This document shows, one piece after another, positions 12,815 to 40,213 of a DNA stretch of 46,122 nucleotides. Source of the DNA: Desulfobacterales bacterium (GTDB lineage Bacteria > Desulfobacterota > Desulfobacteria > Desulfobacterales > Desulfatibacillaceae). The stretch covers positions 1-46,122 of the forward strand of contig JAGVGH010000085.1 of assembly GCA_020057225.1 (NCBI GenBank). The letters are read 5' to 3'. Position numbers and translations under genes: made by a program. Each line of letters starts with the position of its first letter. Within the stretch, counting starts at the first letter, position 1. The notes beneath the pieces were generated by a model. It ran no database searches and had not been told where the DNA came from. It saw only the letters and a program-made list of their open reading frames with translations.

Positions 12815-12932
12815 TGATACCAAAATGCGGTCCACTCCGTAACGCCTGCTGAAAGCGCCCGCTCAATCTCCCTCTCCCTGCGGGAGAGGGCCGGGGTGAG
12901 GGCATACCTTGTCTGATTGCACCTTGGTATGA
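12815..12932. repeat. Dispersed MITE/REP-like repeat family 2, copy 1
   Basis: TGATACCAAAATGCGGTCC...CTCCCTCTCCCTGCGGGAGAGGGCCGGGGTGAGGGC...TTGTCTGATTGCACCTTGGTATGA; imperfect terminal inverted repeats (ATACCAA/TTGGTAT) and internal hairpin; matches 38439-38552. Confidence 0.85.
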
Positions 12933-19403: not shown

Positions 19404-20893
19404 CCGCCGACCATCAAACCCAAAGGCCCGCGTGGGAACCGGTGACCGACCTTCCGGACAACTGGAGGGAATGGGCTTCCGAAGAGGTTCACATTCTCGC
19501 CTCGGCCTGGCTCAAACACAAAATCCTCATTGCAGGCTCCCCGGAGCTTGAAAAATTCAACGCCCGGCTCAGGCGCCAGTGGGCCATCGAAACCGGGGCC
19601 ATCGAGGGTCTTTACAAGATTGACCGGGGCATAACCCTTCTGCTCATGGAACGCGGAATCCACGCGAGCCTTGTTCCGCACGGAAGCGTGGACAAACCCG
19701 TTGAAAGCGTGATGCCCCTGATTCAAGACCAGGAAAGCGCCCTGGAAGGACTTTTTGATTTTGTGGCGGGAAACCGTCCCCTTACCCCCTACTACATCAA
19801 AGAGCTGCATCAGCTTTTAACGCGCAGCCAGCCCGATGTTGTCTGCGTGAACGGCATGGGCAGGACTGTCAACATGCCGCTTGTGTCCGGAGACTGGAAA
19901 AAACTTCCCAACAATCCCTTAAGACCTGACGGCGGCCTCCATTTTTACTGCCCGCCCGAGCATACTCCCATGGAGATGGACCGCCTTGTCGCCATGCACC
20001 TTAACCATGTCGGAGCCAAAGTGCCGCCAGAGATCGAAGCCGCCTGGCTGCACCACAGGTTTACGCAAATCCACCCGTTCCAGGACGGAAACGGCAGGGT
20101 GGCGCGGGCGCTCGCCTCGCTGGTGTTTTTGCGCGCCGGGTGGTTTCCCCTGGTGGTGGTGAGCGACACCCACAGGAACGCGTACATCGCGGCGTTGGAA
20201 GAGGCCGACCAAGGAGACCTTTCCCGGCTTGTCCGCCTTTTCGCGCGCCTTGAAAAAACCGCTTTCATCCAGGCGCTGAGCCTCGCGGGAGAAGTGGAGA
20301 TCGAACAAGAATCCTATACGGCCCTCCTCAAGGCCGTTAAATCACGGCTCTCGGGTCGTCTACCGCAAGAAAACGATGAAGCGCTCCACCATCATAAGGC
20401 GCTGGAAACAGCCAGGGACTTGGGCAGGATCATTCTTGAGAAGCTGGAGGCATGGGCAGAAAAACTCCAGGCGGTTTTCGACGAACTTCCCGAAAAGGCA
20501 TCCGCAAAAGCCGAAGTTGGAACAGACATACAATCCTATTGGTATTACTCCCAGATAGTTCAGGTTGCGCGGCAGCTCGATTACTTCGCAAACACACGGA
20601 GATACCACGCATGGACCCGGCTGCAAATCCGCGAAAGGCGAAAGACATCTCTCGTCTTTTCCGTTCACTGCGTAGGAGTGACTTTTACTGGAATAATGGC
20701 TGTCTCTGCTTTCATGGAGCACCGGGACCTGTTTGCCGATTTTGGCGCCTCTGTTGAAGGCCCCATTCCGCTTTGCTCCGAGGTGTTTACTTTTACCTTC
20801 GCGGAAGCCCCCGCCAAGGTTCTGGCCCGGTTCGAGCCGTGGTTTAAAGAGGCAGTAACTAACGGAATAAGCCGCTGGCAACGGGAGCTTTGA
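19400..20893 (+). CDS. Fic-domain protein (probable AMP-transferase family) with N-terminal inhibitory-type motif
   Basis: GTG start at 19400 overlaps the upstream TGA (GTGA); Fic motif HPFQDGNGRVAR at ~20072-20107; TGAIEG matching [S/T]xxxE[G/N] at 19592-19609. Confidence 0.9.
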   Translation: MTADHQTQRPAWEPVTDLPDNWREWASEEVHILASAWLKHKILIAGSPELEKFNARLRRQWAIETGAIEGLYKIDRGITLLLMERGIHASLVPHGSVDKPVESVMPLIQDQESALEGLFDFVAGNRPLTPYYIKELHQLLTRSQPDVVCVNGMGRTVNMPLVSGDWKKLPNNPLRPDGGLHFYCPPEHTPMEMDRLVAMHLNHVGAKVPPEIEAAWLHHRFTQIHPFQDGNGRVARALASLVFLRAGWFPLVVVSDTHRNAYIAALEEADQGDLSRLVRLFARLEKTAFIQALSLAGEVEIEQESYTALLKAVKSRLSGRLPQENDEALHHHKALETARDLGRIILEKLEAWAEKLQAVFDELPEKASAKAEVGTDIQSYWYYSQIVQVARQLDYFANTRRYHAWTRLQIRERRKTSLVFSVHCVGVTFTGIMAVSAFMEHRDLFADFGASVEGPIPLCSEVFTFTFAEAPAKVLARFEPWFKEAVTNGISRWQREL

Positions 20894-35452: not shown

Positions 35453-36367
35453 TTACGTGTTCTGTCGGCTTGCGGGCGCCTTGGGCGGCGCAGGCTGGAC
35501 AGGCGCAGGTCTCACCGGAGGCTGGGCCCCGGCCGGTGGCGGAAAAGGCACAGGGGTCTGGTGTTCAATAAACCGCCCCACAACCCGCACCTTCATCTCG
35601 GGCCGCGCCTTGTTGTTTGTGTTGAGCAGAACAGCCGTTGAGTACGTGCCCGGATTTTTCTCAAGATTGGTGACCCTGAGAGTCCAGGCGCCGGCGGCGG
35701 GATGGTTCTTTATCAGCTTGACTTTCAGCTTCTCCGGGTGCTCGGGCTTTGCGCCTGTTATCGAAAAAGGATACTTGGGCGCTGGGGTGATAACCACCTC
35801 CTGGCTCACCGCCTCGCCAGGCTCACCGCGCAGGTTGAGGAAATTGGGGATGACCTGGGCGAACTGTTCAACCTGGCCTGTTATGGAAAGATCGGTTTCC
35901 GGACGGTTCACCGAATTGGTGAACACCTTGACGCTTTTTGAGAGTGGCCGTCCGGCATATCCCGCGGTGTTTACCTTGACAGTTATCTTTCCCTCCGAAC
36001 CCGGAGGGATGTCCCTCGTAAACGAGGTCGCTGTGCATCCTCAGCCGGACTGGACGCGGATGATTTGAAGCGGCTGGTCTCCGATGTTTTTAACTGTGAA
36101 GTCGCGGGTGACCTCCGAGTCCTCCAGCGCGGCGCCAAAGTTGTATTGCATTTCCGGGAAAAAAGCGACAGGGCCGCCGCCGGATGCCATGGAGACGGGC
36201 GCGGCCTGGGCGGGCGCCACCGCCGGGATCGGCGCCGGGACGGGCGTCCGGGCCGGTATTTGGGCCTGGACAGGCGCCGCGGGAACCTGCGGGGCGGCAA
36301 AAGCGTGCGCGGCCATAAGACCGGCTCCCAGCAACGCGCAGCATAAGAGCAGTGTTTTAATACGCAT
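35453..36367 (-). CDS. DUF1573-like secreted protein with in-frame TGA (candidate selenocysteine, codon 109); ~304 aa if read through
   Basis: ORFs 36041..36367 and 35453..35926 share one frame separated only by TGA at 36041-36043; read-through NIGDQPLQIIRVQSG-U-GCTATSFTRDIPPGSEGKITVKVNTAGYAGRPLSKSVKVFTNSVNRPE aligns with paralogue NIGNQTLRILSVYSGCGCTAMSYTENIPPGGEGNITVTLNTMGYGGRAVEKSVTVRSSAANRPE. Confidence 0.75.
36007..36040 (-). promoter_or_regulatory. Candidate bacterial SECIS hairpin immediately downstream of the TGA
   Basis: Minus strand after TGA: GGATG-CACAGCGA-CCTC-GTTTAC-GAGG-GA-CATCC; inner CCTC/GAGG with GU-starting loop about 17 nt after TGA; outer GGATG/CATCC. Confidence 0.5.
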
Positions 36368-36517
36368 GGCGGTTTCACCTTGGTCCGAAATGGACGGGCT
36401 TAAAAATTTTGCGTTACGCCCCTGTTGGGCCTTACCCGGCAGGAAGGAACCGTCTGTCTTTTTTCAAGCGGCCAATTAGGGTGTTCCTGCTTCTCCTTTT
36501 GTAATTTTCAAAGAGTC

Positions 36518-36542
36518 GAGGCAATTGCAAAATGAGGCGCAG
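36518..36542. repeat. Truncated end of MITE-like family 1
   Basis: GAGGCAATTGCAAAATGAGGCGCAG matches the reverse complement of the right end of copy A (GGGGTAATTGCAAAATGAGGCGCAG). Confidence 0.7.
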
Positions 36543-36617
36543 ATTCTTGTCCGGATTGTCCGCGCTTTTTGCGTAGATAATGTCTGTGCCATGCTAAGTG
36601 TACAAAAATAAAACTGC

Positions 36618-36782
36618 AGAGGTAATTGCATAATTGGCGTAGATTGGGTGGTTCCGGGCCGCAAGGCCCGGGTTCACCCAACATTTCTAAATGATTTCTA
36701 TGTGTTGGATGAACCTGCCCTCCATTTGGAACCATCCGGCCTACGTTAAATTTGTCGTTTCTATGAGTTTTGCAATTGCCTC
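36618..36782 (+). mobile_element. MITE-like element family 1, copy B (165 bp), 3-bp target duplication TGC
   Basis: AGAGGTAATTGC...GCAATTGCCTC flanked by TGC (36615-36617 and 36783-36785); interior near-identical in layout to copy C. Confidence 0.85.
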
Positions 36783-36830
36783 TGCAAACTGTCGTTTTTT
36801 CTCAAAGCCAGCGGGTCCGAAGCGCCGCTT

Positions 36831-37688
36831 CTATGTTCCGGGCACCGGTCGCCGCGCGGGCGCGGCCTGGGCCGGAGGCGAGGGCTGGGGCGCGGTGAGA
36901 TGCACATGGACCCGCACCTTGAGTTCTGGCCGCTCCGGACTGTCCGTGGTCAGGATTACCCGGGAGGCGTATCTCCCAGGGTTTTTCTCAAGGTTGGTCA
37001 CCGTGAGCACATAGACAGGTTTCACCCCCTGGCTTTTGCGGATATCCGCCTTGAGCCGCTCCACAGGCTCCACAATAACGCCCGTGATTTCAAAGGGGCG
37101 CCGGGCGTTGGGATCAATGACCACTTCCTGGCCAAGCGCCTCGCCCGCCGCGCCTTTGAGATTCACCATCCCCGGGATGATTTTGGCGAACTCCTCCACC
37201 AGGCCTTTGAGTGTCAGAGTTGTCTCAGGCCGGTTGGCGGCGCTGGAGCGGACCGTCACGCTTTTTTCAACAGCCCTGCCGCCGTAACCCATGGTGTTGA
37301 GAGTAACGGTGATATTGCCTTCGCCTCCGGGCGGAATGTTTTCCGTGTACGACATGGCAGTGCATCCGCATCCGGAGTAAACGCTCAAAATCCGCAGAGT
37401 CTGGTTGCCGATGTTTTTGACAGGAAAACTGAAAACCACAGGAACCCCTTCGGGAGTGGGCGGGAAGGGGTACTCGATTACCGGAAAAAAGGCGACAGCC
37501 CCTTCTTCGAGGGTTTCTCCCTCTGTCAGGGGGGCTGGCGCCGCCTGGGCCGAGGCGGATTCAGTCGCGGGAGATTCCGCCGGAAGCGCGGTTCCGGCTG
37601 CCCAGGGCAAGAGGAGGCATGCAACAGCCAAGGCCAGGACAAGGGGTTTTCGCATACAGCGCTCCATTCCGCGGAAATGCTTTAACAC
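36831..37688 (-). CDS. DUF1573-like secreted protein (Cys-containing paralogue)
   Basis: Signal peptide; VYSGCGCTAMSYTENIPPGGEGNITVTLNTMGYGGRAVEKSVTV. Probable start is the internal MRKPLVLALAVACLLLPWAAG. Confidence 0.88.
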   Translation of the reverse strand: MLKHFRGMERCMRKPLVLALAVACLLLPWAAGTALPAESPATESASAQAAPAPLTEGETLEEGAVAFFPVIEYPFPPTPEGVPVVFSFPVKNIGNQTLRILSVYSGCGCTAMSYTENIPPGGEGNITVTLNTMGYGGRAVEKSVTVRSSAANRPETTLTLKGLVEEFAKIIPGMVNLKGAAGEALGQEVVIDPNARRPFEITGVIVEPVERLKADIRKSQGVKPVYVLTVTNLEKNPGRYASRVILTTDSPERPELKVRVHVHLTAPQPSPPAQAAPARRPVPGT

Positions 37689-37885
37689 GACGGCGCAAGT
37701 CTAATCCCCGTCACGGGCCTTGTCAAGGACGCAGCCAGGGCAAAAACCCGGGGGGACGCGCCCCATTTTAACCGCGCCCGGGGGCGCGTCTCCCGGCAGG
37801 GCCACGTCAAAGTAAGCCAACCAGGAGAAATACGAGGGCATCGGAATCCGCTGGCTTTTTCTCCGCGGACCGGGTATGTTCCCCC

Positions 37886-38441
37886 ATGAACACTTCTCCC
37901 GTCCTCCCCGCCTTTGGCGGTCCGGCCTGTCCGCGCCTTACCTCCCGCCTTAAAGAAATTCTGGATAAATTCCCAAAAAGCGCGGACAGAATACGCGCCG
38001 GGGTAATCGCGCCGGAGGAAAACCCGTCTGCGGGCGATGTCTATCCGGGATTCCCGGTACAAGTCCGCAAAGTCCGCGTGGCCTTGAAAGAGTATTGAGG
38101 TAATTGCATAATTGGCCTGGGTTGGGTGGTTCCGGGCCGCAAGGCCCGGGTTCAGTCAACATTTCTAAAATGATTTCTATGTGTTGGATGAAGCTGCCCT
38201 ACGGGCGGAACCCTCCAGCCTACATCAAATTTGTCGTTTCTATGAGTTTTGCAATTACCTCTATAATCTTGGAAAAAGCAACAGCCTGCGGATTCTTTTC
38301 ATGTATCTCCCGGACAAAAACACAGTGGCGCCGCTCCAGGTGGTCTTTAAAAAGGAGATGCGGAGTGAAAAAAACGTCCCCGCCGAAACCCCGCGGGCGC
38401 TCCGGGACATTCTGAACGCGCTTGACGAAAGCCGGTCTTGA
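37886..38441 (+). pseudogene. RelE/HigB-like toxin gene split by MITE copy C (5' part 37886-38095, 3' part 38265-38441)
   Basis: Joined product (element plus one TAT removed): ...AGDVYPGFPVQVRKVRVALKEY|NLGKSNSLRILFMYLPDKNTVAPLQVVFKKEMRSEKNVPAETPRALRDIL, resembling the RelE-superfamily pattern of K-x-R-x-A then GKSxxxR. Confidence 0.72.
38096..38261 (+). mobile_element. MITE-like element family 1, copy C (166 bp), 3-bp target duplication TAT, inserted in a RelE-like gene
   Basis: TGAGGTAATTGC...GCAATTACCTC flanked by TAT (38093-38095 and 38262-38264). Confidence 0.88.
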
Positions 38442-38552
38442 TACCAACATGCGGTCCAATCCGTACCACCTGCTGAAAGCTCCCTCTCCCTGTGGGAGAG
38501 GGCCGGGGTGAGGGGGTGAGGGCATTACTTGTCTGATTGCGCCTTGGTATGA
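38439..38552. repeat. Dispersed MITE/REP-like repeat family 2, copy 2
   Basis: TGATACCAACATGCGGTCCAATCCGTACC...CTCCCTCTCCCTGTGGGAGAGGGCCGGGGTGAGGG...TTGTCTGATTGCGCCTTGGTATGA; direct-orientation match to 12815-12932. Confidence 0.85.
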
Positions 38553-38661
38553 TACCCTGTTGGCCGCCCGAATCCGGAAAAGATACGCGGAGCGCGGCAT
38601 GGCGGCGTTGGCAGGGAGGGGGGAAGAAGAAGGCTGACTGTTGGATTACTGATGGGTGGTA

Positions 38662-38755
38662 TGGCGGAGAGAGTGGGATTCGAACCCACGGTGCCGGTTT
38701 ACCCAGCACACTCGCTTAGCAGGCGAGCACCTTCGGCCGACTCGGTCATCTCTCC
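38662..38755 (-). tRNA. tRNA-Ser (GCT)
   Basis: Reverse strand GGAGAGATGACCGAGTCGGCCGAAGGTGCTCGCCTGCTAAGCGAG...GGTTCGAATCCCACTCTCTCCGCCA. Confidence 0.95.
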
Positions 38756-38832
38756 GTATTTGTTGGCCGCGTTTTTTGAGCCGCGTTTGCGGTGTGAAAC
38801 TCGAAAGCCTGGCAAGGCAAGGAAGAACTCCC

Positions 38833-38918
38833 TGGCGGAGGGAGTAGGATTCGAACCCACGGAGCTTGCGCTCAACGGTTTTCAAGACCGCCGCCTTCGA
38901 CCGCTCGGCCATCCCTCC
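38833..38918 (-). tRNA. tRNA-Ser (TGA)
   Basis: Reverse strand GGAGGGATGGCCGAGCGGTCGAAGGCGGCGGTCTTGAAAACCG...GGTTCGAATCCTACTCCCTCCGCCA. Confidence 0.95.
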
Positions 38919-39046
38919 GCGTCGAAGTGGTTTTTATAGCATTATGCTTGCCGCAGGTCAAGGCGCGCGCGCCTTTTTTCATCTTTTTTCATAATTCCTT
39001 TCCGGTTCAATGCGTCTTGGAACAGGCATTAACCGTGCGGACATTG

Positions 39047-39118
39047 CCGTCGCCCCGGCGAAAGCCGGGGCCCAGGCTTTTTCCGGCCCTTGGACCCCGG
39101 CTTTCGCCGGGGTGACGG
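39047..39118. repeat. Palindromic dispersed repeat (CCCCGGCGAAAGCCGGGG pair)
   Basis: ccgtcgccccggcgaaagccggggcccagg...ttggaccccggctttcgccggggtgacgg; arms are inverted copies. Confidence 0.85.
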
Positions 39119-39247
39119 TTGTGCCCGCCCTTCGGACAGGGCAACCAAACCAATCGGGAGGGGATTCTGACAAGCGCTCACGCCCCCGGTTTTGTTTTTT
39201 TCCCTCAGAAAGCCTTGGGTCCGCGTCTCCGGACGCGGGCGTTGTTC

Positions 39248-40213
39248 TCAAAACCTCTTAAACGGCTGTTTGGTGTCTGTGAAATCCGGCACCGCGTTGT
39301 CCGGGGATTCCTCCAGGTCCTGGACCAACAGATGCTTGAACCCCAGGGACCGGGCCATCCCCACCGCCTCCGCGTATTCTTCGGGCAAAAGCCTCCGCGC
39401 GATTTCCGGATACTCCCCGGCTTTGTGGAGCGGCGTGTACTGGCTCATCAGGGAAAGGCCGATGCCGGTGCCCGCCTCCAGGGCCAGAAAGCACAGGGTC
39501 TCCCAGGTGCCGGAAACACCGCCGGGAAGCACCAGATGCCGCGCCCAGACTCCCCGGACCGCAAGGCCCGTTTCCGGGTCTATTTGGATGTCCCCGGCCA
39601 GTTTCCGCATCTCCAGCACAGCGTCCCGGGCCGCTGCCACATAGCCCGGGGCCTTGGAATACCGGGCCGCCATTTCCTCGTCCGCGTATTTGAGGTCCGG
39701 CATCCACACATCCACAAGCCCGTCAAGCGCCCGCAATTGCTCCAGGGAATCATAGGCCGATGTGTTGTACACAACCGGTGTTTTAAGGCCCGATTTTTTT
39801 GCGAAAACAAGGGCTTCCCTGATTTGGGGACCCTGGCAGGAGGGCGAGACAAGGCCGGTGAAACAGGCGCCCCGGGCCTGGAGAAGAAGGGCCTCCCGGG
39901 CAAAGCGCTCCTTGGTGTAGAGGGTGTCCTGCGCGCGGCCCTGGCTTATCTGGTGGTTTTGGCAATAGACACAGGCGAGGCTGCAGGAGCTGAAAAAGAA
40001 GTTGGCGACCCCGCCGGTTCCGGTAAAGCAAGGCTCCTCGCCAAAGTGCAGGCCGGCCCAGGCCACGTGAAGGCCCGCGGAAAGGCCGCAGAAGCCTGTT
40101 TCGCCTGAAAGCCGGTCCGCGCCGCAGCGTCTGGGGCAGACACGGCAGGGGGCGAGAGGGCTGTCTTCCGCCCGGGCAAGACCTTGTCTCTTGGGTTGCG
40201 AAGTGTGTTTCAC
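39248..40213 (-). CDS. Radical SAM protein, pyruvate-formate-lyase-activating-enzyme-like
   Basis: SCSLACVYCQNHQISQ (CxxxCxxC); N-term CRVCPRRCGADRLSGETGFCG. Confidence 0.93.
   Translation of the reverse strand: MKHTSQPKRQGLARAEDSPLAPCRVCPRRCGADRLSGETGFCGLSAGLHVAWAGLHFGEEPCFTGTGGVANFFFSSCSLACVYCQNHQISQGRAQDTLYTKERFAREALLLQARGACFTGLVSPSCQGPQIREALVFAKKSGLKTPVVYNTSAYDSLEQLRALDGLVDVWMPDLKYADEEMAARYSKAPGYVAAARDAVLEMRKLAGDIQIDPETGLAVRGVWARHLVLPGGVSGTWETLCFLALEAGTGIGLSLMSQYTPLHKAGEYPEIARRLLPEEYAEAVGMARSLGFKHLLVQDLEESPDNAVPDFTDTKQPFKRF

What the first reader, a model, noticed from the sequence alone, without database searches (positions are those of the whole stretch)
37886..38441. MITE insertion that splits a RelE-like toxin gene; frame restored on virtual excision
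The + strand ORF from 37886 stops at a TGA supplied by the element (...VRKVRVALKEY-TGA). Removing 38096-38264 (166-bp element plus one TAT) joins GAG TAT to AAT CTT GGA AAA AGC, giving VRKVRVALKEY-NLGKSNSLRILFMYLPDKNTVAPLQVVFKKEMRSEKNVPAETPRALRDIL, a RelE/HigB-like core. Neither half is a convincing gene alone. No antitoxin gene is visible beside it.
Basis: partly seen in the sequence, partly recalled or inferred. Interest (0 to 1): 0.72.

Follow-up and report, generated by a model that had tools for sequence, protein, structure and literature searches.

The report
Transposon-split RelE/HigB-like toxin gene relic
A short, very abundant mobile DNA element has jumped into the middle of a small RNase-toxin-like gene in a Desulfobacterales bacterium and broken it; intact relatives elsewhere are always paired with an undescribed all-helical neighbour protein, which is missing here.

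Summary
A 165-bp MITE (38097-38261) cuts one gene in two. Each half on its own hits the same uninterrupted 119-aa ORF in another Desulfobacterales genome (E 1.7e-4 and 5e-9), and on a family profile the halves cover positions 12-64 and 65-119, meeting with no gap. The element is one of at least 40 scored near-identical copies (hundreds by end count) and carries 12-bp terminal repeats and a 4-bp target duplication. Here the duplication is TATT/TATA, so one base differs. The family is RelE-superfamily: its profile hits V. cholerae HigB-2 at 2e-6, and an AlphaFold model of an intact relative matches HigB2 and RelE structures. New: in all 10 distinct relatives found, the toxin-like gene follows a conserved 125-185-aa all-helical protein with no Pfam, PDB-sequence or fold match, a candidate antitoxin. 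It is absent from the window and was not detected in the rest of this draft genome. The window copy also lacks the family's N-terminal strand, and its stop codon coincides with the start of a second high-copy repeat. I read it as a dead relic. MITE inactivation of genes is known; the partner protein is the interesting by-product.

The parts
37886..38098 (+). N-terminal part of the interrupted RelE/HigB-like gene (70 codons, ends at TGA 38096-38098); residues 19-70 match family profile positions 12-64; the first ~18 residues do not match the family
38093..38096 (.). left copy of the 4-bp target duplication, TATT
38097..38261 (.). 165-bp MITE, GAGGTAATTGCA...TGCAATTACCTC, no coding capacity assigned
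38262..38265 (.). right copy of the target duplication, TATA (one base differs from the left copy)
38265..38441 (+). C-terminal part of the gene (58 codons plus stop); matches family profile positions 65-119
38441..38550 (.). second, unrelated high-copy inverted-repeat element (ATACCAA...TTGGTAT, here 110 bp); the gene's TGA stop (38439-38441) lies at its left boundary
36619..36782 (.). second copy of the same MITE in the window, with an exact TGCA target duplication

Best explanation
A 165-bp non-autonomous transposon of a family with hundreds of copies inserted into a RelE/HigB2-superfamily gene between codons KEY and NLGKS, making a 4-bp duplication and a frameshift with an immediate TGA (shown by comparison). 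This separates the helices and strand beta-2 from the beta-3/beta-4 core with the conserved basic residues, so neither product can form the RelE fold (inferred from the predicted structure of an intact relative). In relatives the gene is the second gene of a two-gene unit behind an all-helical partner, most likely its antitoxin (inferred from constant linkage and gene overlap). In this genome the partner, and probably the toxin's N-terminal strand, are gone and a second repeat abuts its end, so the locus is a non-functional relic. The order of events is not known. The most economical order is that toxin inactivation came first or together with antitoxin loss, because losing a neutralising partner before the toxin is broken should be harmful.
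For: Each half hits the same uninterrupted ORF in G030 (20499-20648 and 20652-20813), and the halves meet exactly at profile positions 64/65. MITE copies, ends and target duplications. HigB-2 profile match 1.8e-6. Predicted fold E-HH-EEE-H with pLDDT 85 and Foldseek to HigB2 8.9e-6 and RelE 5.6e-4. Partner upstream in all 10 distinct relatives. Partner not detected in the window or the genome. No second copy of the toxin-like gene in G000. Second repeat at the stop codon.
Against: Both halves are still open and carry most family-conserved residues, so decay is not far advanced. That says little: the MITE copy differs from its consensus at 10 positions, and at such an age about one chance stop would be expected. 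The genome is a 92%-complete draft, so a partner in a gap cannot be excluded, and the partner search of G000 used a single sequence. The N-terminal part could still be expressed as a 70-aa peptide.
Confidence: 0.88

Rival explanations
1. The locus was already a dead toxin fragment (5' deleted together with the antitoxin) and the MITE simply landed in junk DNA. This is a variant of the best explanation that differs in the order of events.
For: The first 18 residues do not match the family and no partner is upstream. MITEs of this family are everywhere in the genome.
Against: The remaining ~107 residues on both sides are in frame and well conserved, so the gene was probably still largely intact when hit or soon before. 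The order cannot be dated from one genome.
Confidence: 0.35
2. Reversible switch: precise excision of the MITE turns the toxin gene back on in some cells.
For: The insertion is 169 bp including one duplication, so precise loss would keep the reading frame.
Against: The two duplications differ by one base, no mobilising transposase with these ends was found (one search found only one partial DDE_Tnp_1 match at a contig edge), the partner is absent, and the N-terminal strand looks lost.
Confidence: 0.03
3. The gene is not a toxin: the RelE-like fold serves another, phage-related role together with the helical partner.
For: Two relatives lie in viral contigs, one just upstream of a long ORF that reads like a portal protein. 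The match to HigB-2 is distant, no relative has been tested, and the partner does not resemble known antitoxins.
Against: Two-gene partner-first layout with overlapping genes, and RelE-type basic and aromatic residues (R57, R72, Y90, K92 of the relative) conserved among relatives.
Confidence: 0.15

Closest known systems
HigB2 of Vibrio cholerae (HigBA2; RelE-superfamily ribosome-dependent mRNase; PDB 5ja8, 5jaa, 8a0x)
   Same: Best profile match (1.8e-6) and best structural match to the model of an intact relative (8.9e-6); shared GD..G...RK.R / GK..G.R.IY core.
   Different: About 20% identity. In HigBA2 the toxin comes first with an HTH antitoxin (from general knowledge); here a larger all-helical protein without HTH match comes first. 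The window copy is broken and has no partner.
RelE/ParE-type toxins of the same order with ~80-aa antitoxins
   Same: Same superfamily, antitoxin-first overlapping gene pairs.
   Different: Their upstream genes are mostly ~75-105-aa proteins, several reading like Phd/YefM or RelB types. The window's clade has the LKEY signature before GKS and the larger helical partner; the window halves score 48 and 39 bits with their own clade's profile against 13 and 9 with the other.
Prokaryotic MITEs that inactivate genes (Correia, Chunjie, others; review PMC10969869)
   Same: Short, terminal inverted repeats, target duplication, high copy number, insertion into a gene.
   Different: No match to a named family was found; parent transposase not identified. 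Copy number of hundreds is at the high end, though ERIC reaches 711 in Photorhabdus luminescens (PMC10969869).

Membership tests
MITE | terminal inverted repeats | tested here: met
   12-bp GAGGTAATTGCA at both ends
MITE | fixed-length target duplication | tested here: met
   4 bp exact in 20 of 34 copies, 1% expected; 3 of 4 in the window copy
MITE | many copies, short, no transposase gene | tested here: met
   at least 40 scored copies, mostly 164-166 bp; 423 terminal 12-mers in G000 with 0 in the control
MITE | mobilised by a related full-length element | tested here: inconclusive
   one partial DDE_Tnp_1 match only, at a contig edge, without these ends nearby; other transposase families not searched
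RelE/HigB superfamily (family of the interrupted gene) | significant sequence relation to a characterised member | tested here: met
   profile of intact relatives: HigB-2 1.8e-6; window halves tied to the clade profile at 48 and 39 bits; Pfam only sub-threshold
RelE/HigB superfamily (family of the interrupted gene) | RelE fold | tested here: met
   model of an intact relative, not of the window gene: pLDDT 85, Foldseek HigB2/RelE probability 1.00
functional type II toxin-antitoxin system (window locus) | intact toxin next to an antitoxin gene | tested here: not met
   toxin-like gene interrupted; partner not detected in window or draft genome
type II toxin-antitoxin system (relatives) | two-gene unit, partner adjacent | tested here: met
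   10 of 10 distinct relatives; nearly all overlap or abut, one with a 73-nt gap
type II toxin-antitoxin system (relatives) | toxin arrests growth, partner neutralises by binding | not testable with these tools
   needs expression and binding assays

The most novel reading that the evidence does not exclude
The intact relatives form a new type II toxin-antitoxin family in Desulfobacterales, Nitrospirota and their prophages: a HigB2-like mRNase neutralised by a ~140-aa all-helical, cysteine-motif (CxxxC) protein of no known family, and the window holds a MITE-killed member.
Probability: 0.55. Interest if true: 0.55.

Novelty: new member of a known kind. Interest (0 to 1): 0.4.

Why it matters
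It is a clean, residue-exact example of a high-copy MITE breaking a toxin-like gene whose partner is also missing, relevant to how addiction modules decay. More usefully, following it up exposed a toxin-like family with an unrecognised helical partner that can be tested directly as a new antitoxin type.

Tried and rejected
Pfam, NCBIfam, PADLOC and PHROGs on the separate halves gave nothing useful (phrog_5869 of unknown function matches the intact relative at 2e-6 and the C-terminal half only at 0.07). A genome-contig scan with the C-terminal half alone found nothing. Phage records had no match, plasmids one distant RelE/ParE annotation in Pseudanabaena. PF01609 search for the parent transposase: one partial match without these ends. 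Rfam on 36000-39500: only two tRNAs, so the element is not a known RNA family. Partner fold against PDB and viral models: no significant match. Literature searches found no description of this pair or element, in open-access papers only.

Full report
Check of the observation. The + strand ORF from 37886 has 70 codons and ends at TGA 38096-38098; the reading frame resumes at 38265 and stays open to TGA at 38439-38441. Between them lies an inverted-repeat element. Taken separately, the 70-residue and the 58-residue halves each search to one and the same place in a Desulfobacterales genome, G030: N-terminal half to bases 20499-20648 (E 1.7e-4), C-terminal half to 20652-20813 (E 5e-9), inside one 130-codon open frame without stops. 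With a profile built from eight intact relatives the N-terminal half aligns to positions 12-64, ending at its last residue, and the C-terminal half to 65-119, starting at its first residue. The interruption is therefore real, and the relatives carry nothing at that point.

The element. In the window's own genome (3.5 Mb, 323 contigs, 92% complete) the search scored 40 candidates, its cap, and nearly all are copies of 138-169 bp at 87-96% identity. The terminal 12-mer GAGGTAATTGCA occurs 210 times on one strand and 213 on the other, with no hit for the backwards control. Since 44 of 68 ends in the 34 aligned copies are exact, this suggests about 300 copies; the sample is of the most similar copies and shorter hairpin forms exist, so this is an order of magnitude. 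Exact 4-bp target duplications flank 20 of 34 copies, against 1% for pairs drawn from different copies, and no copy has an exact 5-bp repeat. The window copy is 38097-38261 with TATT on the left and TATA on the right. The element folds strongly as a single strand (z -4.95) and has no Rfam match. Four of the five genera sampled in the same family contain at least partial matches, weaker and mostly to the interior outside this genome. It meets the MITE definition; its parent transposase is unknown.

The gene family. Within the order, 28 of 391 genomes match the intact relative, including a close clade at about 40% identity and a distant clade at about 30%. Both the window halves and the LKEY-x-x-GKS signature place the window gene in the close clade. 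A profile of that clade hits V. cholerae HigB-2 at E 1.8e-6 and E. coli RelE at 0.15. AlphaFold on an intact relative gives the RelE topology with mean pLDDT 85, and Foldseek returns HigB2 (8.9e-6) and RelE (5.6e-4). Pfam models reach only sub-threshold ParE_toxin scores. Membership in the RelE/HigB superfamily is thus supported through the relatives; toxicity is untested.

The missing partner. In every close relative found (G030, G128, G150, G187, G184 with its identical viral contig, G091, G322, one further viral contig, a Thermodesulfovibrio and a Nitrospirae genome: 10 distinct loci) the toxin-like gene is directly preceded on the same strand by a homologous ORF of about 125-185 aa, read from stop to stop, most ending in a WDDLxEDCxIxSDxEFRxLxxxIAE-like motif. 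It is predicted all-helical (pLDDT 78) and has no significant Pfam, PDB-sequence, PDB-fold or viral-fold match. In the distant clade the upstream gene is instead mostly a 75-105-aa protein of ordinary antitoxin size. The natural inference is that the helical protein is the antitoxin of this clade; that is not shown. The partner profile finds nothing in six frames of the window, and one partner sequence finds nothing in the draft genome.

State of the window locus. The first 18 residues of the N-terminal half do not match the family, so strand beta-1 is probably lost or replaced. The stop codon of the C-terminal half falls on the boundary of a second repeat family of about 110 bp with ATACCAA/TTGGTAT ends, also at least 40 copies. 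With partner absent, 5' end unlike the family, middle interrupted and 3' end abutted by a repeat, the locus is best read as a relic. Which event came first cannot be told from one genome: the MITE copy differs from its consensus at 10 positions, and at such an age about one chance stop codon would be expected in the remaining coding sequence, so the absence of stops is not informative (inference).

Comparison and verdict. Inactivation of genes by MITEs is established in bacteria (review PMC10969869), and RelE-superfamily toxins are common. The locus itself is a new member of known kinds. What would surprise a specialist is the partner protein, which may be an undescribed antitoxin type.

Noticed in passing
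window 38097-38261 and 36619-36782; whole genome G000: The MITE family has a copy number in the hundreds in a 3.5-Mb genome, often near contig ends, so it probably fragments the assembly; short hairpin-like forms with the two ends about 43 bp apart also occur.
   Followed up: partly
window 38441-38550 and about 12815-12932: A second, unrelated repeat of about 100-114 bp with ATACCAA/TTGGTAT ends, at least 40 copies; one copy lies at the end of a truncated DDE transposase ORF on contig C143 (L094).
   Followed up: partly
L082:2453-2953, L080:798-1319, L083:2546-3001, L079:2491-2949, L078:2432-2989, L085:2406-2921, L081:2463-2945, L084:2439-2945: Conserved all-helical partner with CxxxC and a WDDLxEDC-like C-terminal motif upstream of the RelE-like gene; no known family.
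   Followed up: yes
L021 (G322), about 1501-1854: Another relative of the toxin-like gene appears interrupted by an in-frame TAA although its partner ORF is intact.
   Followed up: no
window 35453-36367 (-): ORFs resembling the intact ORF at 36831-37688 seem to be one paralogue broken by a frameshift around 35926-36041.
   Followed up: no
window 38665-38918 (-): Two tRNA genes lie just downstream of the relic, a common neighbourhood for integrated elements.
   Followed up: no
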